DNA from: an uncultured Ruminiclostridium sp.
GTDB lineage: Bacteria; Bacillota; Clostridia; Oscillospirales; Ruminococcaceae
Assembly: GCA_905235805.1 (NCBI GenBank)
Contig: CAJOMV010000016.1
Coordinates: forward strand, 1-64,000
Reading direction: 5' to 3'
DNA length: 64,000 nucleotides
Shown here piece after piece: positions 123 through 48,840 of this stretch (position 1 is the first letter of the stretch; every line of letters begins with the position of its first letter). Both the position numbers and the translations under genes were made by a program. A model generated the notes under the pieces. The model was not told the origin of the DNA, ran no database searches, and saw nothing but the letters and a program-made list of their open reading frames with translations.

Positions 123-1550
123 CTAATTGGAATCTATGATATTTTGGGCGGTTTCGAGGGAATCTGTCTCGGTAATGTTTTTGAGCACGCGGTTTATGGC
201 GTTGGAGCGTGTAGTGACGAGCTTTTCGAGGTCCTCATCGACCTGCCGCAGGTGCTTTCGGGTGGACTGGAGGGCGGTACTGAAATTACCGAACTCCTTC
301 TTTGCCGCCTCGAGCACCTTCTGAATCTCGACGCTCTTCTCTCTTATACGGAGGGTCTGGAAGCCCATACGCAGGCTGTTCAGCATAGCCGCCATAGTGG
401 AGGGACCGGTGAGGCTGACGCGGTAATTGCGCTGGAGCTCCTCCACCAGTCCGGGAGTGCTCACCGCCTCTGAGTAGAGTCCCTCGGACGACAGGAACAT
501 TATGGCGAAATCCGTTGTGTTCGGCGGGCATATATACTTATCGCGTATACTCTTCGCCTCATCTCTTATGGTGGCGGTGAGGCGCTTGCGGCGCTCTGCC
601 GCTTCATCGGAGTTCCCGCTGTTCAGCGAATCGATAAGCGCGGCGTATGTATCGGCGGGGAACTTCGAGTCTATCGGCAGGTAAACGGGCTCTTCGCCGT
701 TAGCTCCCGGGAGCTTCACCGCGAAATCCACCTTATATGCACCTGTGCCGGTGACATTTGCCTGCGTCTCGTACTGGTCCGGGGAGAGGATATCCTGCAG
801 AATGGATTCGAGCTGCACCTCACCGAAATTGCCGCGTGTCTTTACATTCGACAGCACCTTTTTCAGGTCGGTGATGTTCACCGCGACGCTCTGCATCTCA
901 CCGAGCCCGCGGGACACGTTCATGAGCTGGTCGTTGACGGTGCGGAAGGACTCGCTGATACGCTTGTCGAGGGATTCCTGGAGCTTCTCGTTCACTGTGC
1001 CGTTTATCTTGTCGAGACTGCGGCTGTTCTCCTCCCGGAGCTTGTCCATGCTGCGGTTGATGAGGTCGAGCTGGTTCTTCTGCTCATCGCGCAGTCCCTT
1101 CCCGAGCTCGGAAAGGCTGTTTGTGATAGTGTTGTTCATCGCCTCGAGACGGCTGTTGAGGGTGTCCTGCATTTTGTCGGTGACTATGCCGCGAATGCTG
1201 TCAAGGCTATCCTTGCTCTCCTTTTTCAGCTCCGCCACATCTTCGCCTATCGACTTTACGGCTGACGCGGTGGTTTCCCGCATATTCCGCTGCTCGCTCT
1301 CGAGCCTGTCGCCGAGAAGCCCCACATTCTGCTTCACGGTATCGGAGAGTGTGGAGTTCTGCCTGCCGAGCTGGTCAAGTATCCCCCTGCTGCCGCCGTC
1401 GAAATACTCCTTGAGCCGTTCTGTCTGCTCCTTCAGCTGCGACTTGTTCACCGAGCCGCTCTTTTTGTTCAGCAGCAGTACCAGCACCGTTACGAGCAGT
1501 ATGATGTTGAGCACGCAGCAGATCATTATGATGATATCGGATAATTCCAT
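123..1550 (-). CDS. rmuC: RmuC family DNA recombination protein
   Basis: N-terminal TM, long coiled coil, C-terminal RmuC-like region (VDFAVKLPG..LPIDSKFP..FLSSEGLYSEA). Confidence 0.85.
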   Translation of the reverse strand: MELSDIIIMICCVLNIILLVTVLVLLLNKKSGSVNKSQLKEQTERLKEYFDGGSRGILDQLGRQNSTLSDTVKQNVGLLGDRLESEQRNMRETTASAVKSIGEDVAELKKESKDSLDSIRGIVTDKMQDTLNSRLEAMNNTITNSLSELGKGLRDEQKNQLDLINRSMDKLREENSRSLDKINGTVNEKLQESLDKRISESFRTVNDQLMNVSRGLGEMQSVAVNITDLKKVLSNVKTRGNFGEVQLESILQDILSPDQYETQANVTGTGAYKVDFAVKLPGANGEEPVYLPIDSKFPADTYAALIDSLNSGNSDEAAERRKRLTATIRDEAKSIRDKYICPPNTTDFAIMFLSSEGLYSEAVSTPGLVEELQRNYRVSLTGPSTMAAMLNSLRMGFQTLRIREKSVEIQKVLEAAKKEFGNFSTALQSTRKHLRQVDEDLEKLVTTRSNAINRVLKNITETDSLETAQNIIDSN

Positions 1551-1569
1551 TTTGCAGTTCCTTTCTTTG

Positions 1570-2565
1570 TCATATATACAGCAGGAAGAACGTGAGTATG
1601 AGCGAGCACGCTATCCCGGCTATGACGAGCGGCGAGGTGAATATGACCCCGAACTGCTCCTTGTCCGTCATGAACCACGGCTCCCTGAATACGAACAGGT
1701 GCTTCTTCAGGGCGAGTATCACCGCTATCGCCCCGCCGTACAGTATCACAAGCCCGGATAAATTCGATAACATCGCCAGCGAGTCGAATATGCTGTCAAC
1801 GACCGCGTTCCCGAAGGTCTCGGGCAGATAGGAGGAAAATCCGGCGAGCGCGTTGTTGACCATGTGTATTATCACAGAGGGGATAATGGAGTCTCTGCGT
1901 ATCGCCGCCACCGCCAGCGAAAAGCCGAACAGGAAGGTGTACAGGAACTGGTCGAAGTTGAAATGTCCCAGCCCGAATATCAGCGACGATATCACAGCCG
2001 CCTGCATATCCCCGTACCTTCTCAGGGGACGCAGCAGCAGGTGGCGGTATATGAGCTCCTCGCAGATCGGTGCGACGACAACGCTGAATATCTCGAAGGT
2101 GATGAACTGCACCGTATCCTGCGATATCGAGTCGGAGAACGCCGCCTCAGGCACCGGTACATTGAACAGATCGTTCATAAAGTCGGAAACATACGCGGTG
2201 AAAAGAGCGCCTATCCTCCCGAGACAGCCGCCCGCAAAGAACAGTATTACCAGCTCGCCCGTTTCCTTCGGGTAGGGATACATACTGTTTGTCTCGCTCA
2301 GATCCCGTTTGAAAAGCAGACCGAACACAATGAAAAGCGGCAGATACGAGACGAGGGAATTCAGGAACATAGATTCCGCGTAGCCGATATCCGTCGAGGT
2401 GTCGATAGTCCCGCTTCCCGTGAAGAGCGCAAGCAGAGCCACGAACGCGAAATGCAGCAGGAACGCGAGAAAAATGTAGTTGAATATATTGAAAAGCATC
2501 ACTGCCCCGTATTTGTCGGCGGTGCTGCGGAGTGAAGCCTGCGGCGAGCCTTCGGGGTATCTCAT
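1570..2565 (-). CDS. CPBP family intramembrane metalloprotease
   Basis: Multi-TM with EELIYRHLLLRPLRRYG and FGLGHFNFDQF motifs. Confidence 0.85.
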   Translation of the reverse strand: MRYPEGSPQASLRSTADKYGAVMLFNIFNYIFLAFLLHFAFVALLALFTGSGTIDTSTDIGYAESMFLNSLVSYLPLFIVFGLLFKRDLSETNSMYPYPKETGELVILFFAGGCLGRIGALFTAYVSDFMNDLFNVPVPEAAFSDSISQDTVQFITFEIFSVVVAPICEELIYRHLLLRPLRRYGDMQAAVISSLIFGLGHFNFDQFLYTFLFGFSLAVAAIRRDSIIPSVIIHMVNNALAGFSSYLPETFGNAVVDSIFDSLAMLSNLSGLVILYGGAIAVILALKKHLFVFREPWFMTDKEQFGVIFTSPLVIAGIACSLILTFFLLYI

Positions 2566-2569
2566 TGCG

Positions 2570-3640
2570 TCACGCTCCTTGTATCATTGAGGCGACCAGC
2601 CCCGAGGAAATGCCGAACAGTGTGTCGATGACCATTATCAGTGTGATCACCGCCGGCACCGTCGTAAGCAGCAGCGCCGTCTTTTTCCCGTTTGTTATCT
2701 CCGGGCAGACCTTCTTCACCTTGTATTTCTTTATCTGCTTTATTTTCAGTACGGCGGATATGAAGCCGACTATCATGAAGATGAATATGCTCACCATGAA
2801 TATGCCGAATACAGCCACCCATATCATATCCTCGTCGGGAATGGTGTCGGGGTTGCCGTTCAGAATGAATTCCTGCACTCCGTTCGTGGACATCAGCAGT
2901 ATCATTATGCCGCTGACTCCGTTTACCATAGCGTGTATTATGGTAGTGGAGAATATAGACCCGGTGACGTTCGCGATATACCCGAGGCAGATACCGATGA
3001 CCATGGTATAGAAAAGCTGCTGGAAATTCGCGTGGGCTATGCCGAACATTATGCCCGTTGCGAATATGGCGAGCCCGTTGCCGTACGGCTTCAGCGCGTC
3101 CATGAGCACTCCCCGGTACACGAATTCCTCAAATACCGGAGCTATCACCACAAGCACGAAGAACATATACAGCGACGCCCATATATCTCCCTCAAGCGCG
3201 GGAGACACAGCATTGAGCCGCTTTGTCAGGTCAACGTCCCTGAAGCAGAAGAACATTATTATAAGCGTCACCACATTGACTATCGCCCCCGCGCCGTATA
3301 CGGCGGGGAAATTCCCTATCGCGCGGGTGTTGCTCTTCGGTATCCTGTAATGCACCTTCAGTCCCGTGCCGCCCTTTCCGAGCCAGCCGAACATATACGC
3401 TCCGATAATAGCCGGAGCGACCTGCAGGAACATGAACGAGATCGTGAGCTGTACGATGTACTTCGCGGTATAGGGATGATGGTCGCCTAACAGCGCCGAG
3501 ACAGCGGTTATCGTGTAAGAGCCGACATACCGCAGTATGAATACGATGAGAAAGAACACGCCCACCTTGAGGGCTGTTTTTTTGTAATCCCTTGTTACCT
3601 CCGCCGCGTCGCGGACTGCGGCTGTATTTTCTTCCGGCAT
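2570..3640 (-). CDS. CPBP family intramembrane metalloprotease (second, adjacent)
   Basis: FEEFVYRGVLMDALKPYG and FGIAHANFQQ motifs, multi-TM. Confidence 0.85.
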   Translation of the reverse strand: MPEENTAAVRDAAEVTRDYKKTALKVGVFFLIVFILRYVGSYTITAVSALLGDHHPYTAKYIVQLTISFMFLQVAPAIIGAYMFGWLGKGGTGLKVHYRIPKSNTRAIGNFPAVYGAGAIVNVVTLIIMFFCFRDVDLTKRLNAVSPALEGDIWASLYMFFVLVVIAPVFEEFVYRGVLMDALKPYGNGLAIFATGIMFGIAHANFQQLFYTMVIGICLGYIANVTGSIFSTTIIHAMVNGVSGIMILLMSTNGVQEFILNGNPDTIPDEDMIWVAVFGIFMVSIFIFMIVGFISAVLKIKQIKKYKVKKVCPEITNGKKTALLLTTVPAVITLIMVIDTLFGISSGLVASMIQGA

Positions 3641-3659
3641 TTCATATCTCCTTGCTTGT

Positions 3660-4868
3660 TTACGCTTTCTTTACGCGTTTCGAATTATGCTCCCAGTTCT
3701 CGATTATCTTTGTTTCGGCACGCTGATAAACGAGGCTGTCGGGCGGCACGATATCGTGCTTTGTGACGGTGGAGCCGGCGGCGGTGGCGGCGTTCTCGCC
3801 TATCTCCACGGGAGCTACGAGGTTGGTATTGCAGCCTATGAAGGCATTGTCGCCTATCTTGGTGCGGAACTTGTTCACGCCGTCATAGTTGGCGGTGACG
3901 CAGCCGCAGCCGAAATTCACTCCCTTGCCCACATCGCTGTCGCCGAGGTAGGTCAGGTGCGCCACGGCGGTATTCACGCCGATCTCCGAGTTCTTTATCT
4001 CCACGAAATCCCCTATCTTCACGCCCTCATGGAGCACCGTACCGGGACGAAGCTGTACGAAGGGACCCGCCTTGACGCGGTCTGCGATCTTCGCCTCATA
4101 CGCCTGCACGGAATTGAGGATAACGCCGTTACCCACGGTGCAATTCTCGATGATGGTATTGGGACCTATCACGCATTCCTCGCCTATGACCGTATTTCCG
4201 CGGAGTATAGTCCCCGGAAGTATGACGGTGTCTCTGCCGACCTTCACGTTCTTTTCTATGATGATGCCGTCGGTGGAGACGAATTCCACGCCCTCGTCGA
4301 GAAGCTTTCCTATCACTGCCATTTTCGCGGTGATGTTCAGGCGCAGCAGGTCGGCGCGGCTGTCGGCTGTGAGCAGTATGTTCGGGTCCTGTATGTCGAG
4401 AGCGCCTGTCTTTCCGCCGTTTGCAGCGGCTGCTGCCACTGCGTCCGCGGCACTCTCGGGAAGTGGTCTGCCGAGAGCGCGGGAGCTGAACCAGTATGCC
4501 GCGAAGCCTATGCCGGTCACATCGTTTCCGGAGAAGGTATGCTCGTTGAGCGCGGCGGCGAGGGTGTCGCAGTTCACGAAGGGGGTATTCGCGCTCATTA
4601 TGAGGACATTCCCGCAGTCGGTCAGCTCCTTCGCCTCGCTCATCTTTTTATAGAAGCGTATGCCCTCCCTCCCGGACAGGTATTCCTTCAGTATTTCCGC
4701 GCCGCTGTTTATCACTATCCCGATGTGCTCGTCGTCTATCCCGGCGCCGTTGACGCTTTCGAGCACCCAGTCGATAAGCGGTTCGCCGAGCACCTCCCAC
4801 ATCGCAAGGGGCTTTCTGGAATTTGTCTGTCTGCCGCAGTCGGCAAGTATTATTGCGCTGTAATTCAT
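3660..4868 (-). CDS. GlmU-like protein: degenerate nucleotidyltransferase domain plus left-handed beta-helix acetyltransferase
   Basis: C-terminal hexapeptide repeats and HLTYLGDSDVGKGVNFGCGCVTANYDG; N-terminus LADCGRQTNSRKPLA replaces the canonical LAAGxGTRM signature. Confidence 0.8.
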   Translation of the reverse strand: MNYSAIILADCGRQTNSRKPLAMWEVLGEPLIDWVLESVNGAGIDDEHIGIVINSGAEILKEYLSGREGIRFYKKMSEAKELTDCGNVLIMSANTPFVNCDTLAAALNEHTFSGNDVTGIGFAAYWFSSRALGRPLPESAADAVAAAAANGGKTGALDIQDPNILLTADSRADLLRLNITAKMAVIGKLLDEGVEFVSTDGIIIEKNVKVGRDTVILPGTILRGNTVIGEECVIGPNTIIENCTVGNGVILNSVQAYEAKIADRVKAGPFVQLRPGTVLHEGVKIGDFVEIKNSEIGVNTAVAHLTYLGDSDVGKGVNFGCGCVTANYDGVNKFRTKIGDNAFIGCNTNLVAPVEIGENAATAAGSTVTKHDIVPPDSLVYQRAETKIIENWEHNSKRVKKA

Positions 4869-4960
4869 CTTTATCGCCTTTCTTTATGTACTTATCATCG
4901 TTTTTTCGGATATCGCCTGTACTATTATCGCACATTTCGGAAAAATAATCAATAGGTTTG

Positions 4961-4989
4961 TTGATTTTAATTGAAATTTGTGATATACT
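4961..4989 (+). promoter_or_regulatory. Sigma-A type promoter TTGATT-N17-TATACT for the secA-like gene
   Basis: -35 at 4961-4966, -10 at 4984-4989, CDS start 5019. Confidence 0.55.
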
Positions 4990-5018
4990 TTATTTATTAT
5001 GACTGTAAGGGTGATATT

Positions 5019-7421
5019 ATGATAAAAGGATTTGAAAGAAAACCGAAGGAATTTGCGGAGAATGTGCGGAAGGCTGCGGAGAACTCGACGCTTGCGGAGC
5101 TCACGGCTAAGGCGCGGGAGGAGAAGGATCCGCTGTCCGCGTACGCGGCGGTATACCTTGCGGTGCGGGACGGGATAGGGCTCACGCCCTTCGGTTCGCA
5201 GATAATAGCGGGCGGGTACCTTGACGACGCGAACATAGCGGAGCTTGCCACGGGCGAGGGCAAGACGGTCGCTGCTGTATTTGCGGCGTATATGTCGGTG
5301 TGCAGGGGCGAGCATATCCATATCCTCACCTTCAACGACTACCTTGCCAAGCGCGACAGGGAATGGATGAAGCCCGCCTATGACCTGCTCGGGGTGAGTA
5401 CGGCGTACATCACCGAAAAGACCCCGCGCGAGGAGCGCAGAACCGCTTACAGGGCGGACGTGCTGTATTCCACCGTGAAGGAATGCGGCTTTGATTTCCT
5501 GCGGGATTTCCTTGTGTTCGATCCTGCCGAGGCTGTCGGGAACGGCTATGAGCGGGTGATCGTCGATGAGGCGGATTCACTGCTGATAGACGAGGCGAGG
5601 ATACCGCTGATAGCGGCGGGGATAATGGACATCGAGAAGGATGAGGAGCTGCCCGCCGTGTTTGAGTTCGCAAAGACTCTCGAGGAGGGCGATTACGACA
5701 CCGACGAGGGCTCGGGGAATGCGTTCCTCACCCGCTCAGGCGAGAGGAAGGCGGAGGAGCATTTCGGGATCGACAACATATATTCCGGTAAGAACAACGC
5801 CCTGCTGACGCGGCTGAACGAGTGCCTGAACGCCCTGTTCGTGTACGCGGAGGACAAGGATTATATAGTGCGGGACGGTCAGATACGCATTATCGACGCG
5901 TTCACCGGGCGCACAGCCGAGGACCGCTGCTATCCCGGCTTTTTGCAGCCCGCGATAGAGCTCAAGCACGGTCTGGACGTGTCGGAGCGCGGCGTGGTCA
6001 TGGGGAGCATACCGATACAGTTTTTCATAAGACAGTACAGCCACGTTTCGGGAATGACCGGCACCGCCATGACCGCAAGAGAGGAGTTCGACGAGCTGTA
6101 CGGGCTGGTGGTCAAGCCCGTCGAGCCGAACACCCCCTCCATACGCACCGACCTGCCCATGGCGGTGTACTACGACGAGAACAGCAAGCTGAAAGCCATA
6201 GTCCGCGAGGTGCGGGAAGCCCATGACCGTGAGCAGCCCGTCCTCATCGGCACGGCTAACATAGCGCAGTCCGAGAGGCTGTCGGCGCTTCTGACCGAGG
6301 CGGGGATAGAGCATTCCGTCCTGAACGCGAAGAACGACGAGGAAGAGGCGGAGATAATCAAGGGTGCCGGAATGCCCGGGGCGGTCACGGTCTCCACCAA
6401 TATGGCGGGACGCGGAGTTGACATAAAGCTCGGAGGCTCGGACGAGATGCGCCGCAGTGAGGCAGTCGCGGCAGGCGGTCTGTACGCCATAGGCACCTTC
6501 ATGGCGGAGAGCGCCCGCATAAACGACCAGCTCCGCGGCAGAGCCGCCCGTCAGGGCGACCCGGGGCAGAGCCGATTGTTCGTGTCGCTCGACGAGCCGA
6601 TAATGACGGTCTATAAGCTGAAAAAGCACATTCCCTCCAATAAATACCCCGAGCCGACCGAGGACGAGATAACCGAGAAGTCGGTGGTGAAGGAGGTCGC
6701 CCGCATACAGAAGATATCGCAGGGCAAGAAGCTCGACGAGCGCGTGCGCCTTCTGAAGCTGACGATGATAGGTGAGAAGCACCGCGATCAGGTCTTTGAG
6801 TCCCGTCAGAAGTACCTTACCGGCGAAAAGGCTCCCACGATATGGCAGGACGAGTTCCCGGAGCTGTATGAGAAAGCCGTGGAGAAGTACGGTGAGGAGA
6901 AGGTGGCGGAGAAGCAGCTCGAGTATGTTCTGGCGAAGATAAATATGCGTTGGAGCGCCTATCTCGAGTTCGCGACATGGTTCCGCGAGAGCATACACCT
7001 GCGCGCTATCGGAGGCGAGAACCCCGCGGACGAGTACAATATCGGCTGTGAGCAGTATTACGATGATATGGGCGGCGAGCTGATAAAGGAAATGGGCGAG
7101 GGGCTCGAGGAGCTTATCGGGAAGTCTCCCGACGGTCTGAAAATACCTCGTCCCAAGCGTATCAGCACCTACCTTCTCGAGGATACCGGCGACGAATTCG
7201 AGCGCCGCACCCTTGCGGAGTTTGTCGGTGAGACGATATTCGGCGAGATAGACGAGGAGGAGTTCGAGGAGTACTACGCCGGCGATGCCGAGCTTGAAGA
7301 AGCCGAGGACGATATGGTTCCCGAAAAGAAGAAGAAAGAAGAAAAAGACGGCGCTGAAGATGAAGAAAAGCCCGCAAAACAGGGCTTTTTCAGTAAATTA
7401 TTCGGAAAGAACAAAAAGTGA
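5019..7421 (+). CDS. SecA-family preprotein translocase ATPase (short, SecA2-like)
   Basis: ELATGEGKT Walker A, VDEADSLLIDEARIPLI, GMTGTA, TNMAGRGVDIKLGG, LRGRAARQGDPG; no C-terminal Cys zinc motif; ORF-track start 4971 lies inside the promoter. Confidence 0.88.
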   Translation: MIKGFERKPKEFAENVRKAAENSTLAELTAKAREEKDPLSAYAAVYLAVRDGIGLTPFGSQIIAGGYLDDANIAELATGEGKTVAAVFAAYMSVCRGEHIHILTFNDYLAKRDREWMKPAYDLLGVSTAYITEKTPREERRTAYRADVLYSTVKECGFDFLRDFLVFDPAEAVGNGYERVIVDEADSLLIDEARIPLIAAGIMDIEKDEELPAVFEFAKTLEEGDYDTDEGSGNAFLTRSGERKAEEHFGIDNIYSGKNNALLTRLNECLNALFVYAEDKDYIVRDGQIRIIDAFTGRTAEDRCYPGFLQPAIELKHGLDVSERGVVMGSIPIQFFIRQYSHVSGMTGTAMTAREEFDELYGLVVKPVEPNTPSIRTDLPMAVYYDENSKLKAIVREVREAHDREQPVLIGTANIAQSERLSALLTEAGIEHSVLNAKNDEEEAEIIKGAGMPGAVTVSTNMAGRGVDIKLGGSDEMRRSEAVAAGGLYAIGTFMAESARINDQLRGRAARQGDPGQSRLFVSLDEPIMTVYKLKKHIPSNKYPEPTEDEITEKSVVKEVARIQKISQGKKLDERVRLLKLTMIGEKHRDQVFESRQKYLTGEKAPTIWQDEFPELYEKAVEKYGEEKVAEKQLEYVLAKINMRWSAYLEFATWFRESIHLRAIGGENPADEYNIGCEQYYDDMGGELIKEMGEGLEELIGKSPDGLKIPRPKRISTYLLEDTGDEFERRTLAEFVGETIFGEIDEEEFEEYYAGDAELEEAEDDMVPEKKKKEEKDGAEDEEKPAKQGFFSKLFGKNKK

Positions 7422-8782
7422 TGAATACGATAGCAGCAATAGCGACCCCTCTCGGGGCAGGCGGCGTGGCGATGATACGGGTGTCGGGTGAAGACGCGGT
7501 AAGCATAGCCGGGCGGGTATTTTTCCCGGTGAGCGGCAGGGCGGTATCGGAGATGCGCGGCTACACGGCTTGCTACGGCGAGATACGGGACGGCGGGACG
7601 CGCATAGATGACGGCGTTCTGCTGATATACCGCGCTCCGCACAGCTACACAGGCGAGGACACGGCGGAGATATCCTGTCACGGCGGCACCTACGCGGCGA
7701 AGCGGGTGCTCGCGGCGTGCTTCAATGCGGGCGCTGAACCTGCGCAGGCGGGGGAATTCACCAAGCGAGCCCTGCTGAACGGCAAGCTTTCCCTCACACA
7801 GGCGGAGGCTGTCGCGGACATTATCGCGGCGCAGAACGAGCAGTTCCTCACAGTCAGCAATTCCCAGCGCGAGGGCGCACTTTACCGCAGGATACGCGGC
7901 ATAGCCGACGAGCTTCTGTCCGTGATAACGCTGATACAGGCGTGGATAGACTACCCGGACGAAATGGAGGACGAGTTCGACGGCAACCTCGAGGCTGACA
8001 AGCTCCGCGGTGTAATCCGCGAGCTCGACGAGCTTCTCGCCAGCTACGGTGAGGGGCAGATACTCCGCGACGGCTTGCCCTGTGCGATAGTCGGCAAGCC
8101 CAACGCGGGCAAATCCACGCTCATGAACCTGCTGACAGGCACCGAGCGCAGCATAGTGACCGACATCGAGGGTACGACCCGCGACATCATCGAAGAAACG
8201 GTGACCCTCGGAGGGATAATGCTCCGGCTCGCGGACTGCGCCGGCATACGCGGCACCGACGATATCGTTGAGAGCATAGGCGTAGAGCGAATGCTGAAGA
8301 AGATAGACGAATCGGCGCTGATATTCGCGGTGTTCGATTCGAGCCGTCCCCTCTCCGAAGAGGACGAGCGGCTTATAGCGCATATCAAGAACAAGCGGGT
8401 CATTTGCATAATAAATAAGACCGATCTCCCCGAAGCCGCCGATACCGCGCGCCTTGAGAGCATTTTCCCGGACACTCTGCGAATAAGCGCGAAGGACCCC
8501 GCCGCGTCAGCGGCGATAGCCGAAGCCGCGGCACGTCTCTCGGGAATAGGCGACCTCGACCTGAACTCGGGATTTATCGCCAACGAGCGTCAGCGCCGAT
8601 GCGCAGCGGAGGCGCGTGACTTCACAGAGCAGGCGTGCTCCGCGCTCATGCAGGGCATGACCCTCGACGCGGTCGGCATTATGTGCGAGAACGCCCTCGA
8701 CCGTCTCTACGAGCTCTCCGGCGAGCAGGTCGGCGAGAACGTCATAGATCAGGTCTTTTCCCGCTTCTGCGTGGGGAAGTGA
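7421..8782 (+). CDS. mnmE: tRNA uridine-5-carboxymethylaminomethyl modification GTPase MnmE
   Basis: IAAIATPLGAGGVAMIRVSG start, GKPNAGKST, DIEGTTRD, NKTD, C-terminal FCVGK. Confidence 0.95.
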   Translation: MNTIAAIATPLGAGGVAMIRVSGEDAVSIAGRVFFPVSGRAVSEMRGYTACYGEIRDGGTRIDDGVLLIYRAPHSYTGEDTAEISCHGGTYAAKRVLAACFNAGAEPAQAGEFTKRALLNGKLSLTQAEAVADIIAAQNEQFLTVSNSQREGALYRRIRGIADELLSVITLIQAWIDYPDEMEDEFDGNLEADKLRGVIRELDELLASYGEGQILRDGLPCAIVGKPNAGKSTLMNLLTGTERSIVTDIEGTTRDIIEETVTLGGIMLRLADCAGIRGTDDIVESIGVERMLKKIDESALIFAVFDSSRPLSEEDERLIAHIKNKRVICIINKTDLPEAADTARLESIFPDTLRISAKDPAASAAIAEAAARLSGIGDLDLNSGFIANERQRRCAAEARDFTEQACSALMQGMTLDAVGIMCENALDRLYELSGEQVGENVIDQVFSRFCVGK

Positions 8783-8795
8783 GGGGCGCCTGCGG

Positions 8796-9014
8796 GCGCG
8801 AGTTGGTCGCTTCGCTCGAGACTGGGGGAAAACTTTTGTGAACAAAAGTTTGTCTGTCGGTCAGCCCCTCTGGCGCCTTCGTCGCCACCTCCCCAGCGGG
8901 GAGACCACCCCAGACCCCCTTTCACGCAGCACGAGGCTGCGGTAGGCTCCCCCAAAAGCGCTGCACGACGCAGCGCAACAGAGGGAGCCGAAAAAACTTT
9001 AATTGCATTCGCGC
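8796..9014. repeat. Composite intergenic repeat: hairpin module A interrupted by module B and a GGCTCCC/GGGAGCC hairpin module C
   Basis: Shared segments with 24622-24700, 40899-40976, 20037-20094 and 14432-14457. Confidence 0.7.
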
Positions 9015-9062
9015 TAAGAGGTTAAATCGGTGCGTTCTAACCAAGAAAGTCGGGGTGATACA

Positions 9063-10112
9063 GTGACAGAACGTGATAACATGGACGGCGAGCTTGAACA
9101 GATCTTCCGCTTGTTTTTTGATGAGGTGCCAAGCTCATTTTGGAATATCAATACAAGCAGGGGAGACGGTGATTTCAGAGAAACGGTCATTGTTAAGACC
9201 GTGTCGGGCAATAAATATGTGATAAAGCTCGCGGATAATGATTTTACATTCCCCGATAAGATAAAAGTGTGGCAAAGAACAGTGCGGGAGTATATCGACC
9301 TCGGATATTACTGCCCTCGGATATACTGTGACAGGAACGGGAGCTTCCCGTATGCAGAGTATGGCGGGCACAGATGCGCTGTGTATGCGGAGGAATTCTC
9401 ACCGTACGCGTCAATTGAAGACAGGGACACCGATGAAGGCGAATGGGACACCGCCGCCTATGACAAATACAGACCCGATATCTGGAGAATGACCGCGAGA
9501 ATAGCGGCAAAATACCTTGACTATACGGGATATCCGTCGGGGTACTGTCTGTTTGAGACCTTCTGCCCGAGCGATAAGACCGATGAAGTGCTCGAAGAGG
9601 CGCTGAAATGGAGGGAGTACACAAGAACGCTGCCCGACGGATTTCAGGAGCAGGTACAAAGGATATGGGAGAAGTGGGCGGAAAACAGAGCGGAGCTTGA
9701 GCCGCTGTATAAAAAGCTGCCGACCTCTGTGTTCCAGGCGGATCTGAATTCCACAAATGTACTTGTTGACGGAAACGACAGGTTTGTCGGGATATACGAC
9801 TTCAATCTCTGCGGGAAAGATGTTTTTCTGAATTATCTGATGCGTGAGAACGGCGGCGCCGACTTTGAGAAAGAGAGAAATACGATATGTGAAATGCTGA
9901 GGGTCGCGAGCGGGTATTATCATTTCTCGGAGCTTGAAAAAGAAGCGGCTTTGAAGCTGTACCGCTGCCTGAAGCCTTTATGGAACGGGGAGGAGCGTCT
10001 AAGGAAGCTGAAGGGATATGATGAGATAAAGGCGTTGCTTGATAAAACGGAGCACTGCCTTACCGCGGACATAGATTTCAGAAAATATATGGAACAGAAA
10101 AGTTATCGCTAA
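9063..10112 (+). CDS. Aminoglycoside phosphotransferase (APH)-like kinase-fold protein
   Basis: FQADLNSTNVLVDGNDRFVGIYDFNLCG catalytic/metal-binding loops; GTG start after GGGGTGA. Confidence 0.65.
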   Translation: MTERDNMDGELEQIFRLFFDEVPSSFWNINTSRGDGDFRETVIVKTVSGNKYVIKLADNDFTFPDKIKVWQRTVREYIDLGYYCPRIYCDRNGSFPYAEYGGHRCAVYAEEFSPYASIEDRDTDEGEWDTAAYDKYRPDIWRMTARIAAKYLDYTGYPSGYCLFETFCPSDKTDEVLEEALKWREYTRTLPDGFQEQVQRIWEKWAENRAELEPLYKKLPTSVFQADLNSTNVLVDGNDRFVGIYDFNLCGKDVFLNYLMRENGGADFEKERNTICEMLRVASGYYHFSELEKEAALKLYRCLKPLWNGEERLRKLKGYDEIKALLDKTEHCLTADIDFRKYMEQKSYR

Positions 10113-10136
10113 AGTTTTCGGGATTTCTGCCGATAT
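10110..10136 (+). promoter_or_regulatory. Sigma-28 (FliA/SigD) type promoter TAAAGTTT-N11-GCCGATAT
   Basis: Exact -35 octamer 10110-10117, 11-nt spacer, -10 at 10129-10136; -35 overlaps the preceding stop codon. Confidence 0.8.
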
Positions 10137-10177
10137 AATATACGGAAGGTTTTGGCTTTACGGGAAAGGAAATCACA

Positions 10178-11053
10178 ATGAATATTTCAAGGATAGGAAG
10201 CGCCGCGGCGGAGATGACCGCGCACAAGGCGAAGGAGCAGGCGCGATATCTCAACGCCGGCGGCGAAACTACGGAGATAACAAGGATATCGGCAGGAAAT
10301 GACGCGTTCTCGCAGAAGCTCGCAGACGTGTTCAAAAGGGAGAACTCCGACCTGATACAGGGCTTGAGCGAGCTGTCGGACGAGGACAGAATGGAGATAG
10401 CGATGAATTCCTATTTTCAGATGCAGGGACGTGTCTATCAGGCGATAAACCGTGAGGAAGCCGATCTGAAAACCTTCAGCTCACTGTCGGACGAGAAGGC
10501 GCGCATCAGCTCCATGCTCGAAAAGGCTCAGGCGAACGGCGGCGGTATAGATACGTCCGACGGCGTGGAGCTCACCACCGAGGACATCTCGAAGCAGCTC
10601 GATGACGTGCAGAGCCGCATGGACGTGTTCCTCGCTCCCTACGGACGCGACGGGGAGGGTGCCGCAAAGTCGAGCGCCTTCAACGAGAGCGTCAGGAAGG
10701 ATTTCGCGGCGTATGCGAGCGTTTTCGAGGGAGTCACGGGACTGCGCAGCGAAGCGCTCGACGCTACCGCCGACCTGACCCTTCACAAGACCGACCGCGA
10801 CGAGAGCAACTACGCGCAGAAGGCGCAGGCTTCCATAAATGCCCTTAAGGAGCAGTCCGAGGGCTTGTCGTCGCTGAAAAAGGATCTCCTCTCGAGCTTC
10901 GGCAAGGATCCCGAGACCGAGAGGCTAAGCGACGAGGCTATGGTCAAGCTCGCGGTGTTTGAGTTCTTCCGCGAGAAATTCTCCTACGGCGGTACGCAGG
11001 AGGAGCTTGAGGAGCAGCTGAAGAGAATGTCGCTGCTCGACGCGAGAGCGTAA
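10178..11053 (+). CDS. Uncharacterised protein, 291 aa, predicted sigma-28 dependent
   Basis: ORF with SD GAAAGGAAATCACA-ATG, no recognised domain or signal peptide. Confidence 0.8.
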   Translation: MNISRIGSAAAEMTAHKAKEQARYLNAGGETTEITRISAGNDAFSQKLADVFKRENSDLIQGLSELSDEDRMEIAMNSYFQMQGRVYQAINREEADLKTFSSLSDEKARISSMLEKAQANGGGIDTSDGVELTTEDISKQLDDVQSRMDVFLAPYGRDGEGAAKSSAFNESVRKDFAAYASVFEGVTGLRSEALDATADLTLHKTDRDESNYAQKAQASINALKEQSEGLSSLKKDLLSSFGKDPETERLSDEAMVKLAVFEFFREKFSYGGTQEELEEQLKRMSLLDARA

Positions 11054-11109
11054 TAACATATCAAGAATGGACGGAAGTCCCCGGAAATTCTTTATAAAGA
11101 AGGTTTTTT

Positions 11110-14100
11110 ATGCTGAAACTTATTTGCGGAGAAGCAGGAACAGGGAAATCGGCACGGCTGTATGAAGCCGTTTCGGAGAGTGCGCAGGCACGGAGGAGGG
11201 TAATACTGTTCGTGCCGGATCAGTTCTCGTTTGAAGCGGAGAAGATGATATACAGGACGGTACCGCACGAATTCTCGCGGTACTGTCGCGTTTCCATGTT
11301 CTCGCGTGAGGCGCAGAGGATACTCCGGGAGCACGGACAGACAAAGGAATACGCCGACGATATCTCAAAGCGTATCGTGATGAAGGGCGTGCTCGACAGA
11401 GTGAAGGGCTCACTGGTGCACTACGGTATGCTCGCGGGGAAGAGCGATTTTATCGCGTTCGCGCTGAGCATGGTGAGCGAGCTGCGCGGAGCGGGACTTT
11501 CCCCCTCGGAGCTGAAAAAGAAGCTCTCCGCCGAGAACGAGCTGTCCGACGTGCTTTCCGACAAAATGAGTGATATACTCACGATATATGAAGCGTACGA
11601 CACCGAGCTGAAAATATCGTTCGACGACAGGCTCGATGATATCAGGCGCGCGTCCGAGCTGATACTTAACTGCGGCGAGGATAATTTTTTCGCGGGGTGT
11701 GATGTATATTTCGATGAGTTCGACCATTTCTCGGGCAACCAGCTTCTTTTCGTGAAGGCGCTCATCGAGAAGGCGGACAGCGTTACCGCCGCGCTTACAT
11801 ATCGCTTCCCGCAGGGGAAAGAGGACGACCCGAAGTACTCCGCTGTCCGCAAGCTTATAGGGCAGCTAAAGGAAGTAAGCGGGCTCAATGATGAGGATAT
11901 CGTGAAGCTGTACGAGTCCCACCGCCGCCCGGAGCCTCCGCGTATCATAGAAGCGCGGGATATATGGCAGGAATGCGACTGGATATGCGCGGAGATATGC
12001 TCGCTCATGGAAAGCGGGACGCGCTGCCGCGACATTGCGGTGATCACCCCGTCGTCAGCTTACGCGCCCGTGCTCGACAGTTCGATGAAGAAATACGGCA
12101 TACCCGCCTTCGCGGATATCCCCGAGTCGCTCATGTCCAAGTCCTTCGTGAAATTCGCGATATATGCGCTGCGGGCGCTGTCGTTCGGGACGAACGACCT
12201 GCTCCGCTATGTGAAGAGCGGCTTTGTGAGATACGATATCCCCGACCCGGACGGCGGCAGCCGTCCCAAGTCCGTGCTTCTGCAGAAGAGGGACATCAAC
12301 CGTCTCGAGGCTATGTGCCGCAGGTATGAGCCCCGCGAGCGCGACTGGCACAAGCCCTTCCCGGTCGGCATAGACAATACCGGAAGGCTCGAGGAGCTGC
12401 GGAAGTTAGTGATCGGACCGCTCGAGGCGCTGAAAAAGGCGCTTATGGGCGCTGACGGCGCGGAGATGACCCGCTGTCTGTGCGAGTTCCTTACCGGTAC
12501 TATGAAAATAGAAAAGACCATACGCGGCAAATGCTACCGTGCGGGCGGCGAGTTCGACAGCGAGCTGTTCGATGAGTACGACGGACTGTGGGAGGACGCT
12601 GTGACCGTGTTCGAGTCGGCGTACAAGGCTCTCGGCGGGCATACCGTAACGCTTGAGGAATACATTTCGGTGCTGACGGACGCGTTCACGGCTGTAACGG
12701 TCGCGAGACCTCCGAAATTCCTCGATTCCGTGACTGTCGGAGACACCGACAGGAGCCGCTTCGGAGACAAGGACTATGTATTCCTGTGCGGCTTCAACGA
12801 CGGTATCATGCCGCCTCCCGCGAAGGTCCCGCAGGCATTCTCCGCGGCTGAGAGCGAAGCGCTTGCGGAAATCGACATACCGCTTGCGCAGGACAGGCGT
12901 TCGCGCTATTCGGAAGAGCTTTTCACGGTCTATCGCTGCATGAATATCCCGAAAAAGCGCCTTTACATGACGTATCCGCTGCAGGGGAGCGACGGGGCGC
13001 TGTCAGATGCTGCGCCCGTGCTCCGCGCGTATTCGGTAAAGCACGGGATAACCGTGGAGGGTGCCGACAGATTTGACGCGACCCATTACTGCCGCACCGT
13101 AAGCTCGGCGCAGCAGTATCTCGCGCACATCTACCGAGACTACGGGCATTACGCGGACAAGGTATCTCTCAAGAGCCTTCCCGAGCTGACGGAACGCTTC
13201 AAGGCGATGCTCGCTTCTGCCGCGGGTGAGGATACCTGCCGCGACAGGCAGCGCATTCCCGCCGATATCGCTGTACTGTTGATGTCAAGGCGCGACTTCT
13301 CCCCGACCGCGATAGAGCAGCTCGTAAAGTGCAAGTTCTCGTATTTCTGTAAATACGGTCTCGATCTCCGCGAGGAAATGTCTCGTGAGACGAGCGCAGC
13401 CCTCACGGGAAATGTGGTGCACTACTGTCTCGAGCAGCTTCTGAAGGACCCCGGGTTCCACAGCATGTCCGAGGCGCAGATACTTTCAGCGGCAAACGCA
13501 TATATCGTGAAGTACGAATGCGAAACGTTCTTCAGCGATTTCGGCGGCTCGAACCGTTTCTCATATCTTCTGAAAAATCTCGCGAAGTATGTGGTGAACG
13601 CCGCGCTCAGCATACAGCTTGAAATGAGTAACAGCGGCTTCCGCCCCATCGAATTCGAGCGTGAGCTCGAGGTCAGGCTCGGCAGCGTGACAGTCCGCGG
13701 ACGCTGCGACCGTATAGACGGGCTGAACGACGATCCCACCGGCAAAGCGTATGTGCGTGTAGTTGACTATAAGCACAAAAAGAAGCAGGAATTCAGTCTG
13801 AATAACGTATTCAACGGATACAATCTCCAGATGCTTCTCTACCTGTATGGTATCTGCTCCGACCCGAAGCTGCTCAGTCCGCAGGCGCAGAGCTTTTTCA
13901 GGAATGGTGCCGCAAAGCTCGACCCTTCCTCGGTATCGTATTTCAAATATGCGGAACTGCCGTACACCGAGGCGAAAAACACTGCGGAGGACAAGGCAAA
14001 CAAGGAAAAGACCAGCATACGCGAATATTATAGGAAAAACGCCCCGCAGGGACTTGTCGTTCAGAGCTCGCCGGAGGTAGCGACAATGGATAAGCTCAAC

Positions 14101-44907: not shown

Positions 44908-44954
44908 AAGCCCGGTCAGCAAAACGACATACTGTCGTTTTGCTGACCGGGCTT
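44908..44954. terminator. 22-bp perfect stem terminator AAGCCCGGTCAGCAAAACGACA-TAC-TGTCGTTTTGCTGACCGGGCTT
   Basis: Perfect inverted repeat following the 3' end of the paralogue operon, A-run (U-run on - strand). Confidence 0.85.
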
Positions 44955-44961
44955 CTCATAT

Positions 44962-45969
44962 TCATATTTCAAGCTCTGAAAACTCCTCCGCTTTCTTGTC
45001 GGTCACCTTCGCAGCGATCACCGCCGTCATTGCGTCATAGCCCGCCTTGCCGCTGTCTGCGGGCTCAGCCGTGCCGGAAGCGCCTCCCTCGCGCTCCTCC
45101 TCCGCTTTCAGGTGCTCGGCGTACAGCTTCACAAGCGCCTCTATCATCGACTTGTAATCCTTGCCTCCGTCCTCTGCCCGGAGGCGCTCCCAGTTCATTG
45201 CGTACCACTCCATGCTGCCGCGGCGGTTGTTGTATTTTGCTTCGTACCGCTCGGTGCTGTACTTTGTGGAGCGCTCCGCAACTCCCTTCAGCAGCCGCTC
45301 GACGTTTATGCCGTTGTCGCCGTCCTCACGGAAATAGCTGTACCGGAGCACCGTGGCGATATCGTCCGCCATAGCCAGCGCGGTGTGGTAATCCATCATT
45401 TTCTGTTCCTCATACGGACACTGGACCCTTCCCTTGACCTGTGAGTAAGCCACTTCGCCGGTATCGGGGTCTATGGTGAACATATCGTAGTCCAGCGCGC
45501 AGGGTGCGCACCACTCGCCGCCCTCCCACCGGGAATAGCGGTCTATCTGCTGTTCAAGTGCCTGTCGGAGAGGGATCCCTTCTTCGAGAGACGTCCGTAT
45601 ATATCCGACAAACTCATCGAGCCCGCCCTCGGCTATCGGGACTTCCAGATACTTCCCCGATTTCTCCATTTCTACATGGGACATTATGATATCATGGAAC
45701 TTACTGCTGTATTCCTCGTCCGGGAGCTGCCCCAGCATAGTTATCGGCTGCTGCAGCTTATGCGCCGCCGACACGACATACATGGCTTCGAGCTCCGGGT
45801 CTATCGACAGGTCGTATTCCGCAGCCGCCATGAGTGAGTTCGCGCCCCTCACCTCGCTGTACGAGAACGCCGCCTGCAAAGCCATACCGAAATTCCCGCC
45901 GCTGCTGTCTGTGCGCGCAGCCGGGGTGTAGCCTGTGTTCAATGATGTGTTGAGTGTTACCGCGTCCAT
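44962..45969 (-). CDS. Uncharacterised protein, paralogue 3 of sigma-28 operon
   Basis: FGMALQAAFSYSEVRGANS, SAAHKLQ, LRYSYFREDGDN, YSTERYE; SD GGGAGGAAAC. Confidence 0.8.
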   Translation of the reverse strand: MDAVTLNTSLNTGYTPAARTDSSGGNFGMALQAAFSYSEVRGANSLMAAAEYDLSIDPELEAMYVVSAAHKLQQPITMLGQLPDEEYSSKFHDIIMSHVEMEKSGKYLEVPIAEGGLDEFVGYIRTSLEEGIPLRQALEQQIDRYSRWEGGEWCAPCALDYDMFTIDPDTGEVAYSQVKGRVQCPYEEQKMMDYHTALAMADDIATVLRYSYFREDGDNGINVERLLKGVAERSTKYSTERYEAKYNNRRGSMEWYAMNWERLRAEDGGKDYKSMIEALVKLYAEHLKAEEEREGGASGTAEPADSGKAGYDAMTAVIAAKVTDKKAEEFSELEI

Positions 45970-45980
45970 GTTTCCTCCCG

Positions 45981-46955
45981 TCATACCGCCATTTCCGTTA
46001 TCCCGTCCGTGATGTTCATCGACAGTCTCGCGGCAATGCCGTCCGCTGTCAGAGGGGACTCTTCGATATTGTCCGGCGTTTCGTCCTCCCGCAGGTCAAG
46101 CCCCTCATCAACAAGCCCGCAGTGCTTATCTATCATATCGAGCAGGGTGTCCAGCGCGTCCTCGGCTTTTCTCTCCAGCATTTCAAAATAACTCTTCCAG
46201 GCGTCATTCTCATGTGCCTCGATCTCCGCGTCGTTCAGCGGAATAAACCGGTCGGTATTGTAGTTCATCTGCTTTATCTCGCCGAGTACGGCGTTGACTG
46301 CTGCCGGGTCATCGCTGTCCTGACGGAAGTATGTGTATCGCATGAAGGTAGCAAGGTCATCGGCTAACGCCAGTGTCGCGGTGATATCGAGGTCATGCTC
46401 CGCGGGTGTTGCGCCGCAGTATACCTGTCCCCGGCGCTGCCTTGTGGTAACGTGCTCGATATCGCCGGTCTCGGTATTGACCCACATCGAGTCACAGATG
46501 TTGATATCCACGAATTTCCCCACATGACCGGACGTGTATCTGCGGGACTGCTCCAGAAGCGCGTCCTTCAGCGACACACCGTTGCGCTGCGCCTCCGAGA
46601 GTCTGTCAAGCAGCTCCGGCAGCTCGTTCATGCCGACCGGGACATTCACATATTTGTCATCCGTGTAGAATTCCCGCTTATCGCCCGAAAGGTCGAGCTT
46701 CTCCTCCGCCTCCCAGTACGCGTCCACGCCCATAGCCTGACGGGTAGAGCGCGGGAGATGATATTGATGCGCGGAGACGTGGACATACATGCTCCTCAGG
46801 TCGGTGTCGCCGAGAGAGCCTACCGCCTTTTCTATGCCCTTCGGCGCGTACAGGCTCTGCAGGGCAATGCCGAAATCGGCTGTTTCTTTTGCCGGTGTTG
46901 TTCTGCGGTTTGCTGTAATATTCTGCGTTGTGCTGTTGATCGTTATTGTGTTCAT
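45981..46955 (-). CDS. Uncharacterised protein, paralogue 2 of sigma-28 operon
   Basis: FGIALQSLYAPKG, VSAHQYHL, MRYTYFRQDSDDPA, YNTDRF. Confidence 0.8.
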   Translation of the reverse strand: MNTITINSTTQNITANRRTTPAKETADFGIALQSLYAPKGIEKAVGSLGDTDLRSMYVHVSAHQYHLPRSTRQAMGVDAYWEAEEKLDLSGDKREFYTDDKYVNVPVGMNELPELLDRLSEAQRNGVSLKDALLEQSRRYTSGHVGKFVDINICDSMWVNTETGDIEHVTTRQRRGQVYCGATPAEHDLDITATLALADDLATFMRYTYFRQDSDDPAAVNAVLGEIKQMNYNTDRFIPLNDAEIEAHENDAWKSYFEMLERKAEDALDTLLDMIDKHCGLVDEGLDLREDETPDNIEESPLTADGIAARLSMNITDGITEMAV

Positions 46956-46966
46956 ATTTCCTCCCG

Positions 46967-47929
46967 TTATATTGCAATTTCAGCCAGCTCCGTCTCATTT
47001 GTTTTACTTACAGCTATCTTTGCTGCCATAGCCGCGACGGTGAGCGACGAGCTGCCAAAATCATCGTTCTCCGTTTCACGCTGCTGTTCAGCCTTGAAAT
47101 GGCGGTCAAGAAGTTCGAGAAGTGAATCAACCATATCATTACGAGGTTCATCATCAGAACCAAGCTTTTCCTGCATCATAACATACCATTCGTCCGAATG
47201 TATTACCGAGTCGTCCCACATCGGATCAAAGCGTTCAGTATTATAACAGTTTGAACGTTCACATATCCCGTTGATAAGTGCCTGAACCTTTGCGGGATCA
47301 TCTGATTTCTCTTTAAAATAAGTATATCTCATTACCGTGGTAAGGTCATCTGCTATCGCCAAAGACGTAAGTATATCCATATTACTGTCGGCTACAGAAC
47401 CATAAGCATTACGGTTTTTTGTATGTGCGACCTCGACCATACCGGTATCAGGGTCAATAGTGAAGAACTCACCGTGATTTAGGTGTGTAACATCGCCATA
47501 ACTGTCGAAATGTTTTTGCAGTACATCTCTGAGCGAATCGCCGTTTGCAAGTCCGTTTTGCAGCTCTTCGACAAATTCACTGAATTTCCCCGGGTCGATA
47601 CGCACGTTGATACAGTCACCCTTCTGAGAAAGTTCAAGATATTTTTCTCTTTTTTCATCAAATGCTTTATCGTATTCGTTCATCGATGCAATGCCAGATT
47701 GACCTGTCACAAGTTGCAGCTTATGCGCGTTTGACACAACATACATATCCTCAAGCTCGTCGTCGAGCATTTCCAAAGCATTTGACGATATGGCATTAAC
47801 GCCCCGCACCTCGCTGTACGAGAACGCACTCTGCAAAGCTATGCCGAAATCGGCTGAGCTGCCCGGCTGTTCGGTTCTGCGGCTTAACGCGATACTCTGT
47901 GCGGTACCGTTTATCATAACAGTATTCAT
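46967..47929 (-). CDS. Uncharacterised protein, paralogue 1 of sigma-28 operon
   Basis: FGIALQSAFSYSEVRGVNAI, VSNAHKLQ, MRYTYFKEKSDDPA, YNTERF; start 47929 with SD GGAGGG. Confidence 0.8.
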   Translation of the reverse strand: MNTVMINGTAQSIALSRRTEQPGSSADFGIALQSAFSYSEVRGVNAISSNALEMLDDELEDMYVVSNAHKLQLVTGQSGIASMNEYDKAFDEKREKYLELSQKGDCINVRIDPGKFSEFVEELQNGLANGDSLRDVLQKHFDSYGDVTHLNHGEFFTIDPDTGMVEVAHTKNRNAYGSVADSNMDILTSLAIADDLTTVMRYTYFKEKSDDPAKVQALINGICERSNCYNTERFDPMWDDSVIHSDEWYVMMQEKLGSDDEPRNDMVDSLLELLDRHFKAEQQRETENDDFGSSSLTVAAMAAKIAVSKTNETELAEIAI

Positions 47930-47970: not shown

Positions 47971-47997
47971 ATATCGGCAGAAATCGTGAAAACTTTA
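47971..47997 (-). promoter_or_regulatory. Sigma-28 type promoter TAAAGTTT-N11-GCCGATAT
   Basis: AAACTTTA 47990-47997 and ATATCGGC 47971-47978 on + strand, 11-nt spacer. Confidence 0.8.
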
Positions 47998-48024: not shown

Positions 48025-48053
48025 ATTGACAAAAACAAAGTATTGTAGTATAA
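48025..48053 (+). promoter_or_regulatory. Sigma-A promoter TTGACA-N17-TATAAT for suf operon
   Basis: ttgacaaaaacaaagtattgtagtataat. Confidence 0.8.
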
Positions 48054-48102
48054 TATACCATACTATTTTAATAGATATTATGGATATAATAGGAGAACTG
48101 CT

Positions 48103-48840
48103 ATGTCAGAACTGCTGAAAATAACCGATCTGCACACTGCCGCGGACGGAAAAGAGATACTGCACGGCGTTTCCCTCGCGGTAAACGAGGGCGAGACGCA
48201 CATCATAATGGGACCGAACGGCGCGGGAAAATCCACCCTCGGCTCGGCTATCATGGGGAGCCCTGAGTACACCGTGACCGGGGGTCGTATAGAATTCCTC
48301 GGCGGGGATATCACCGAGGAGGCCCCCGACAAGCGCGCAAAGCTCGGCATTTTCCTCTCATTCCAGAACCCCGTGGAGATACCGGGTATCACCCTGTCAT
48401 CGTTCCTGCGGAGCGCCTATGAGCAGGTGACCGGGGAGCGGATAAAGCTGTTCGAGTTCAAGAAGAAGCTGAAAGCCGCCATGGAGGTGCTGCAAATGGA
48501 CGCGGCATACGCGGACAGAGAGCTGAATGTGGGATTTTCCGGCGGCGAGAAGAAGAAAGCCGAGATACTCCAGCTGCTGGTGCTCAAGCCCAAGCTCGCA
48601 ATACTCGACGAGACGGACTCCGGGCTCGACGTGGACGCGGTGAAGACAGTCTCCGCGGGCATAAAGGCGTACAAGGAGCAGACCGGCGGCTCACTGCTGA
48701 TAATCACGCACAACACAAAGATACTCGAAGCCCTCACGGTGGACCGCACTCACATAATCGCGGACGGAAGGCTTGTCGCGGAGGGCGGTGCGGAGCTCGT
48801 TGACGAGGTCATCGCCAACGGATTTGAGAAATATATCTGA
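48103..48840 (+). CDS. sufC: Fe-S cluster assembly ATPase SufC
   Basis: GPNGAGKSTLGSAIMG, FSGGEKKKAEILQ, LDETDSGLDVDA. Confidence 0.95.
   Translation: MSELLKITDLHTAADGKEILHGVSLAVNEGETHIIMGPNGAGKSTLGSAIMGSPEYTVTGGRIEFLGGDITEEAPDKRAKLGIFLSFQNPVEIPGITLSSFLRSAYEQVTGERIKLFEFKKKLKAAMEVLQMDAAYADRELNVGFSGGEKKKAEILQLLVLKPKLAILDETDSGLDVDAVKTVSAGIKAYKEQTGGSLLIITHNTKILEALTVDRTHIIADGRLVAEGGAELVDEVIANGFEKYI

What the first reader, a model, noticed from the sequence alone, without database searches (positions are those of the whole stretch)
44962..47929. Tandem family of three divergent paralogues, possible flagellar-export substrates or motility-linked effectors
Seen: shared N-terminal F-G-(I/M)-A-L-Q-(S/A) after a disordered polar leader, central (M/L)RY(T/S)YF(R/K), Y(N/S)T(E/D)R(F/Y), and a similar C-terminal tail (A..A..I/L..E.I/V). 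Strong divergence between copies suggests diversification. Inference: polar unstructured N-termini plus sigma-28 control fit flagellar type III secreted proteins, but this is speculative.
Basis: partly seen in the sequence, partly recalled or inferred. Interest (0 to 1): 0.7.

Follow-up and report, generated by a model that had tools for sequence, protein, structure and literature searches.

The report
Sigma-28 proteins with flagellar export leader
Three neighbouring, long-diverged sister genes of a gut bacterium are switched on by the flagellum-building switch and begin with the same kind of sequence as the bacterium's own flagellar hook-ruler protein, so they are probably proteins sent out through the flagellum, with an unknown job outside the cell.

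Summary
Genes A (47929-46967), B (46955-45981) and C (45969-44962), minus strand, are real paralogues at 32-39% identity. A strict sigma-28 promoter lies 41 bp before A and a strong terminator directly after C, so they form one operon. No Pfam, NCBIfam or PDB relative was found. The family occurs in 18 of 71 genomes of its genus and in no other genus among 394 genomes sampled from the order. All 18 carriers have flagellar genes; none of 9 apparently aflagellate genomes carries it (p about 0.06). The new evidence is the leader: small non-polar residues among 2-7, a polar unstructured linker, then F-x-x-x-hydrophobic at residue 27-28. This matches the two-part signal of rod/hook export substrates (PMC8983047) and this genome's own FliK (F29). 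Most divergent relatives keep the phenylalanine near residue 23-32 although their leaders are not alignable. I conclude: a lineage-specific family of probable flagellar type III substrates. Sigma-28 control is near certain in the window clade, export likely but unproven, extracellular role unknown. Orthologues are under purifying selection (dN/dS about 0.12), so 'diversification' means old duplication, not current positive selection. Several distant copies lack a sigma-28 site.

The parts
47971..47997 (-). sigma-28 promoter TAAA-N15-GCCGATAT; TAAA 47997-47994, GCCGATAT 47978-47971
   Evidence: same form precedes the flagellins of this genome
46967..47929 (-). gene A, 320 aa, first gene of the operon; RBS GGGAGGG
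47834..47848 (-). A: FGIAL (residues 28-32), gate-recognition-like F-x-x-x-hydrophobic
   Evidence: predicted helix 26-38 after a disordered 1-26
47252..47752 (-). A: conserved core, residues 60-226, predicted mixed alpha/beta domain (block pLDDT mostly 66-91), no known fold found
45981..46955 (-). gene B, 324 aa, RBS GGGAGG
46860..46874 (-). B: FGIAL (residues 28-32)
44962..45969 (-). gene C, 335 aa (the ORF list gives a longer start at 45984 that overlaps the stop of B; 45969 has the ribosome site)
45877..45891 (-). C: FGMAL (residues 27-31)
44909..44953 (-). intrinsic terminator directly after C (20-bp stem followed by a T run)
48026..48054 (+). divergent sigma-70-type promoter (12 of 12 matches), probably of the sufC-like gene at 48103; marks the other side of the intergenic region

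Best explanation
A, B and C are one sigma-28-driven operon of lineage-specific proteins that leave the cell through the flagellar type III export channel. SHOWN: one operon layout with a sigma-28 promoter sequence and a terminator; three long-diverged paralogues; a leader with small non-polar residues within the first six to seven residues, a polar linker of about 20 residues and F-x-x-x-L; a conserved core at 60-226. INFERRED: F-x-x-x-L docks on the FlhB pocket and the N-terminal non-polar residues open the gate, as for FlgD and FliK, so the unfolded protein is exported. The core then refolds and acts outside the cell or at the tip of the growing organelle. What it does there is not known; an accessory role in surface or host/fibre contact of swimming cells, like the Fed proteins of Campylobacter, is the most likely guess but weakly supported.
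For: The sigma-28 site is identical in form to the flagellin promoters of the same genome. The same promoter precedes the orthologous operons of G002, G077 and G090, which begin with a 386-aa partner gene, and in G023 a homologue sits right behind a sigma-28-driven flagellin. Leader: F-x-x-x-hydrophobic lies at residues 13-70 in 17 of 18 representatives, against 46% of background proteins and 6.5 expected in shuffles. With the F at 23-34, a polar linker and a non-polar N-terminus, 8 of 13 divergent clusters match against 8% of 289 background proteins (p = 5e-6, criteria set after inspection). FliK of this genome reads MVTKAVSMDVKLGSSNRTRPQDGGGDSGFSDVL, F at 29; FliK of G002, G033, G008 and G035 has F at 25-34; FlgD has it at 37. 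The spacing fits the 19-24 residues needed between the two signals in Salmonella FlgD (PMC8983047). AlphaFold gives disorder at 1-26, a helix at 26-38, then the core. No Sec-like hydrophobic N-terminus. All 18 carrier genomes have flagellar genes.
Against: No secretion data. F-x-x-x-hydrophobic is a short motif, and the criteria were tightened after seeing the family. Leader type and promoter disagree with the Salmonella scheme: a rod/hook-class signal on a sigma-28 (late) gene. Other sigma-28 orphans of the genus lack the motif, so it is not a general mark of that regulon. Copies next to secA, dnaC-like, zinc-transporter or trk genes have no sigma-28 site, and the secA-linked ones have the F at 32-43. 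Each protein has about three cysteines, unusual for flagellar axial proteins. The link to flagella within the genus is not significant alone (0 of 9 aflagellate against 18 of 62, p about 0.06) and is confounded by ancestry.
Confidence: 0.55

Rival explanations
1. Cytosolic proteins of the sigma-28 regulon: they are made with the flagellum and act on motility, chemotaxis or the cell surface from inside, and the leader is only a flexible docking tail (for example for FlhB, FliW or a chaperone), not an export signal.
For: Sigma-28 regulons also hold cytosolic proteins (general knowledge). The core is well conserved (dN/dS 0.11) and the proteins have cysteines. No secretion data.
Against: The FliK-like two-part leader is kept in copies whose leaders are otherwise not alignable; residues 1-26 are predicted disordered.
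Confidence: 0.27
2. Accessory structural or assembly proteins of the hook or filament (cap, length or tip proteins), exported but staying on the organelle.
For: Hook-class leader like FliK; a homologue directly behind a flagellin in G023; FliD_C-like proteins occur near related loci.
Against: Absent from 53 of 71 genomes of the genus, most of them flagellated, so not needed for the flagellum. No Flg_hook or FliD match, no fold match. Cysteines present.
Confidence: 0.1
3. Regulators coupled to export, FlgM-like, acting on the ECF sigma factors encoded nearby in several relatives.
For: ECF sigma genes lie next to the homologues in G090/L007, G002 and G021, and a related one upstream in G023.
Against: No ECF gene next to the window operon or next to the secA-, dnaC- or zinc-transporter-linked copies. 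In L007 and G002 the ECF gene is followed by its own anti-sigma-like partner. No resemblance to FlgM.
Confidence: 0.05
4. Promoter coincidence: the genes are ordinary fast-evolving orphans without functional tie to the flagellum, and only this clade has acquired a sigma-28 site.
For: Most divergent copies lack a sigma-28 site.
Against: All carriers are flagellated; the leader is conserved; the sigma-28 site is shared by four genomes (window, G002, G077, G090) at different operon heads.
Confidence: 0.1

Closest known systems
FliK, hook-length control protein, N-terminal export region (this genome, L101:5544-7223)
   Same: non-polar N-terminus, polar linker, F-x-x-x-L at residue about 29
   Different: no Flg_hook (PF02120) C-terminal domain in A-C; sigma-28 promoter; unrelated core
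Fed proteins (flagellar co-expressed determinants) of Campylobacter jejuni
   Same: works-like analogy: sigma-28-dependent non-structural proteins reported to depend on sigma-28 for production and secretion (PMC5223770)
   Different: no sequence comparison was made here; another phylum; the secretion of A-C is unproven
DUF6033 (PF19498) proteins
   Same: sigma-28-driven orphans with polar N-termini in the same genus
   Different: no DUF6033 match in A-C; F-x-x-x-L leader absent in the DUF6033 proteins of the promoter survey
FlgM
   Same: small flagellar regulon protein exported by the same machinery (general knowledge)
   Different: A-C are about three times longer, with no FlgM match

Membership tests
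sigma-28 (FliA/SigD) regulon | TAAA-N15-GCCGATAT promoter close upstream | tested here: met
   47997-47971, spacer 15, 41 bp before A
sigma-28 (FliA/SigD) regulon | same element at the flagellins of the genome | tested here: met
   C79 and C4 flagellins
sigma-28 (FliA/SigD) regulon | transcript depends on sigma-28 | not testable with these tools
   needs a mutant
rod/hook-class flagellar export substrate | F-x-x-x-hydrophobic gate recognition motif about 30 residues from the N-terminus | tested here: met
   F28/F28/F27; own FliK F29, own FlgD F37
rod/hook-class flagellar export substrate | small non-polar residues at the extreme N-terminus, at least 19 and optimally 24 residues before the motif | tested here: met
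   A: V4, I6, 21-23 residues before F28; B: I4, I6; C: A3, V4, L6
rod/hook-class flagellar export substrate | C-terminal targeting signal (PMC10936197) | tested here: inconclusive
   tail conserved between clades while the middle diverges in some paralogue pairs, but no comparison with the FlgE signal was made
rod/hook-class flagellar export substrate | secretion that depends on FlhA/FlhB | not testable with these tools
   needs secretome of an export mutant
FliK | Flg_hook domain PF02120 | tested here: not met
   no Pfam match in A-C; present in FliK of the same genome
DUF6033 | PF19498 match | tested here: not met
   against E=2e-34 for L109
Fed proteins | sequence homology | not tested
   functional analogy only

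The most novel reading that the evidence does not exclude
A gut commensal lineage has coupled hook-class (FliK-type) export signals to a sigma-28 promoter, giving a class of flagellar-secreted, non-structural proteins that use the early-substrate gate at the late stage. That would mean the early/late export switch is leaky or different here, and that the flagellum of a commensal serves as a protein secretion device.
Probability: 0.25. Interest if true: 0.7.

Novelty: new variant of a known kind. Interest (0 to 1): 0.46.

Why it matters
Flagellar secretion of non-flagellar proteins is known mainly from pathogens. A family in motile gut or rumen Clostridia with a readable export signal would show the flagellum as a general secretion route in commensals. 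It would also test whether the hook-to-filament specificity switch is as strict as in Salmonella, because these genes pair a late promoter with an early-type leader. The family is unnamed in Pfam and NCBIfam.

Tried and rejected
Known domain: Pfam and NCBIfam give nothing above cut-off; a sub-threshold Colicin_D hit in one relative (L081, 20.9 bits against cut-off 25) was not pursued, as no other member shows it. Fold: single-sequence AlphaFold failed (pLDDT 34); with six sequences the core is fair (block pLDDT mostly 66-91) but the best PDB matches are Foldseek E=1.4 and VIA Z 4.5, helical-bundle noise. Profile against PDB sequences: antibody and other chance hits only. Plasmids: none. Viral contigs: the alignment was too divergent to search, so phage relatives are not excluded. 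Positive selection: rejected for orthologues, dN/dS 0.11-0.13. Sigma-28 as a rule for the whole family: rejected. G016 as a carrier without flagella: rejected, it has rod/hook genes and only its FlhA and flagellin are missing in a 76% complete assembly. Recent gene conversion: nucleotide identity of 0.98 at the C-terminal end of L008 copies a and b (0.86 in their leaders) suggests it there, but the window copies do not show it.

Full report
1. The observation. Three minus-strand genes lie at 47929-46967 (A, 320 aa), 46955-45981 (B, 324 aa) and 45969-44962 (C, 335 aa; the longer start at 45984 lacks the ribosome site that precedes 45969). They are paralogues: identity to A is 33-38% over the whole length, with more than 50 invariant columns, including F-G-x-A-L-Q near residue 28, R-Y-x-Y-F and Y-x-T-x-R. 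In its own genome A finds C at 2.5e-50 and B at 1.8e-36 and no fourth copy.

2. Operon and promoter. A strict sigma-28 site, TAAAGTTTTCACGATTTCTGCCGATAT, ends 41 bp before A. The pattern occurs twice in 64 kb where 0.0003 are expected. In the genome the same TAAAGTTTT form stands before two flagellin genes, the 291-aa gene at 10178 of the window, this operon, and a 214/237-aa gene pair on C97. A 20-bp hairpin with a T run follows C at once, so the operon is A-B-C. In related genomes (G002, G077 = L008, G090 = L007) the sigma-28 site heads an operon that starts with a 386-aa partner gene and continues with one to three copies of the family.

3. Distribution. With a 16-sequence profile the family is found in 18 of 71 genomes of the genus and in no other genus among 394 genomes sampled from the order. 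FlhA is present in 60 of 71; 17 of 18 carriers have it, and the last, G016, 76% complete, has rod/hook genes on one contig. One of the 11 FlhA-less genomes, G017, has flagellins. That leaves nine apparently aflagellate genomes with no copy, p about 0.06 by hypergeometric count (my arithmetic). Consistent, but not strong alone, and not corrected for ancestry. Copies sit in unrelated places: next to secA (G001, G008, G016, G033, G091), after a dnaC-like gene (G035), beside zinc-transporter (G061, G092) or trk-like genes (G069), near ECF sigma genes (G021), and behind a flagellin (G023) (the gene names of these neighbours are my reading of the sequences, except where Pfam is cited). Apart from the window clade and G023 these copies have no recognisable sigma-28 site, although almost all of those genomes carry the same consensus elsewhere.

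4. The leader. Residues 1-26 of A are predicted disordered, 26-38 helical, 60-226 folded with block pLDDT mostly 66-91. Leaders of the divergent copies cannot be aligned, yet nearly all keep F-x-x-x-hydrophobic: 17 of 18 within residues 13-70 (shuffle mean 6.5, none of 2000 as high; background proteins 46%). A narrower rule (F at 23-34, polar linker, non-polar residue among 2-7) is met by 8 of 13 divergent clusters and 8% of 289 background proteins (p = 5e-6; rule set after inspection). This is the layout of early flagellar export substrates: in Salmonella FlgD, residues 2-5 (SIAV) and 36-40 (FLTLL) are the gate-opening and gate-recognition signals and need 19-24 residues between them (PMC8983047). 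In the present genome FliK (identified by Flg_hook, E=6e-14) begins MVTKAVSMDVKLGSSNRTRPQDGGGDSGFSDVL, F at 29, FlgD has F37, and FliK of four relatives has F at 25-34. A, B and C have F at 28, 28 and 27. No Sec-type hydrophobic stretch is seen. Other sigma-28-driven orphans of the genus, among them DUF6033 and FlxA-like proteins, do not carry this motif, so the FliK-like leader is a trait of this family and not of the regulon.

5. Evolution. The tree puts A with single copies of three other genomes and C with a copy of G073, so the duplications are older than the species. Orthologue pairs give dN/dS 0.11-0.13. So the large distance between A, B and C reflects age, not current diversifying selection. 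In L008 (G077) copies a and b the middle has diverged while the two ends are much more alike, and nucleotide identity at the C-terminal end reaches 0.98, which suggests local gene conversion there.

6. Function. No family, fold or sequence relative with known function. The best reading is a flagellar type III substrate made with the filament and released or displayed outside. Sigma-28 control of the window operon I hold at about 0.95, export at about 0.55 to 0.65, and an extracellular accessory role at lower odds. The tension between a late promoter and an early-type leader is the most interesting point and is directly testable. The closest works-like case is the Fed group of Campylobacter jejuni, sigma-28-dependent secreted proteins needed in colonisation (PMC5223770); no homology is claimed.

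7. Limits. No expression or secretion data; most genomes are draft assemblies from metagenomes; the motif is short; the survey reached one genus in depth and its order by sampling; phage relatives could not be searched.

Noticed in passing
window 10110-11053 (+): A second perfect sigma-28 site 41 bp before a 291-aa orphan gene (10178-11053) with no Pfam match; its leader also holds F44-SQKL after a polar stretch.
   Followed up: partly
L035 (G000:C97) 3998-5666; relatives at L114, L115: Sigma-28 site before a 214-aa Ala/Lys/Thr-rich protein and a 237-aa protein with a weak FliD_C match (E=3e-5); the 214-aa protein is also sigma-28-led in G002 and G077. A 231-aa FliD_C-like protein (E=1e-5) lies upstream of the family operon in G002 (L046:15113-15808).
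   Followed up: partly
L109, L119, L120, L088:1917-2786: DUF6033 (PF19498) proteins stand behind sigma-28 sites in several genomes of the genus, and one lies next to an FlxA-like gene in the flagellar cluster; DUF6033 may be a flagellar-regulon family.
   Followed up: partly
L007:784-1944, L008:2848-4002, L078: A 386-aa partner protein without known domain heads the sigma-28 operon of the family in related genomes and is not seen beside the window operon.
   Followed up: no
L045 (G023:C55) 777-4106: A sigma-28-driven flagellin appears as two ORFs (500 aa, then 336 aa with Flagellin_C), directly followed by a 210-aa family member; frameshift, split gene or assembly error not resolved.
   Followed up: no
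L042 (G021) 7367-12490: Three tandem family members plus an 84-aa leader-like ORF lie between two sigma-factor-like genes (the first confirmed by Pfam Sigma70_r4_2).
   Followed up: no
L008:4014-6413: Copies a and b share similar leaders (0.86 nt identity) and near-identical C-terminal ends (0.98) around a diverged middle: a cassette-like pattern that suggests gene conversion.
   Followed up: partly
L081:5430-6452 (-): One divergent relative has a sub-threshold Colicin_D match (20.9 bits, cut-off 25) over residues 153-206; probably chance.
   Followed up: no
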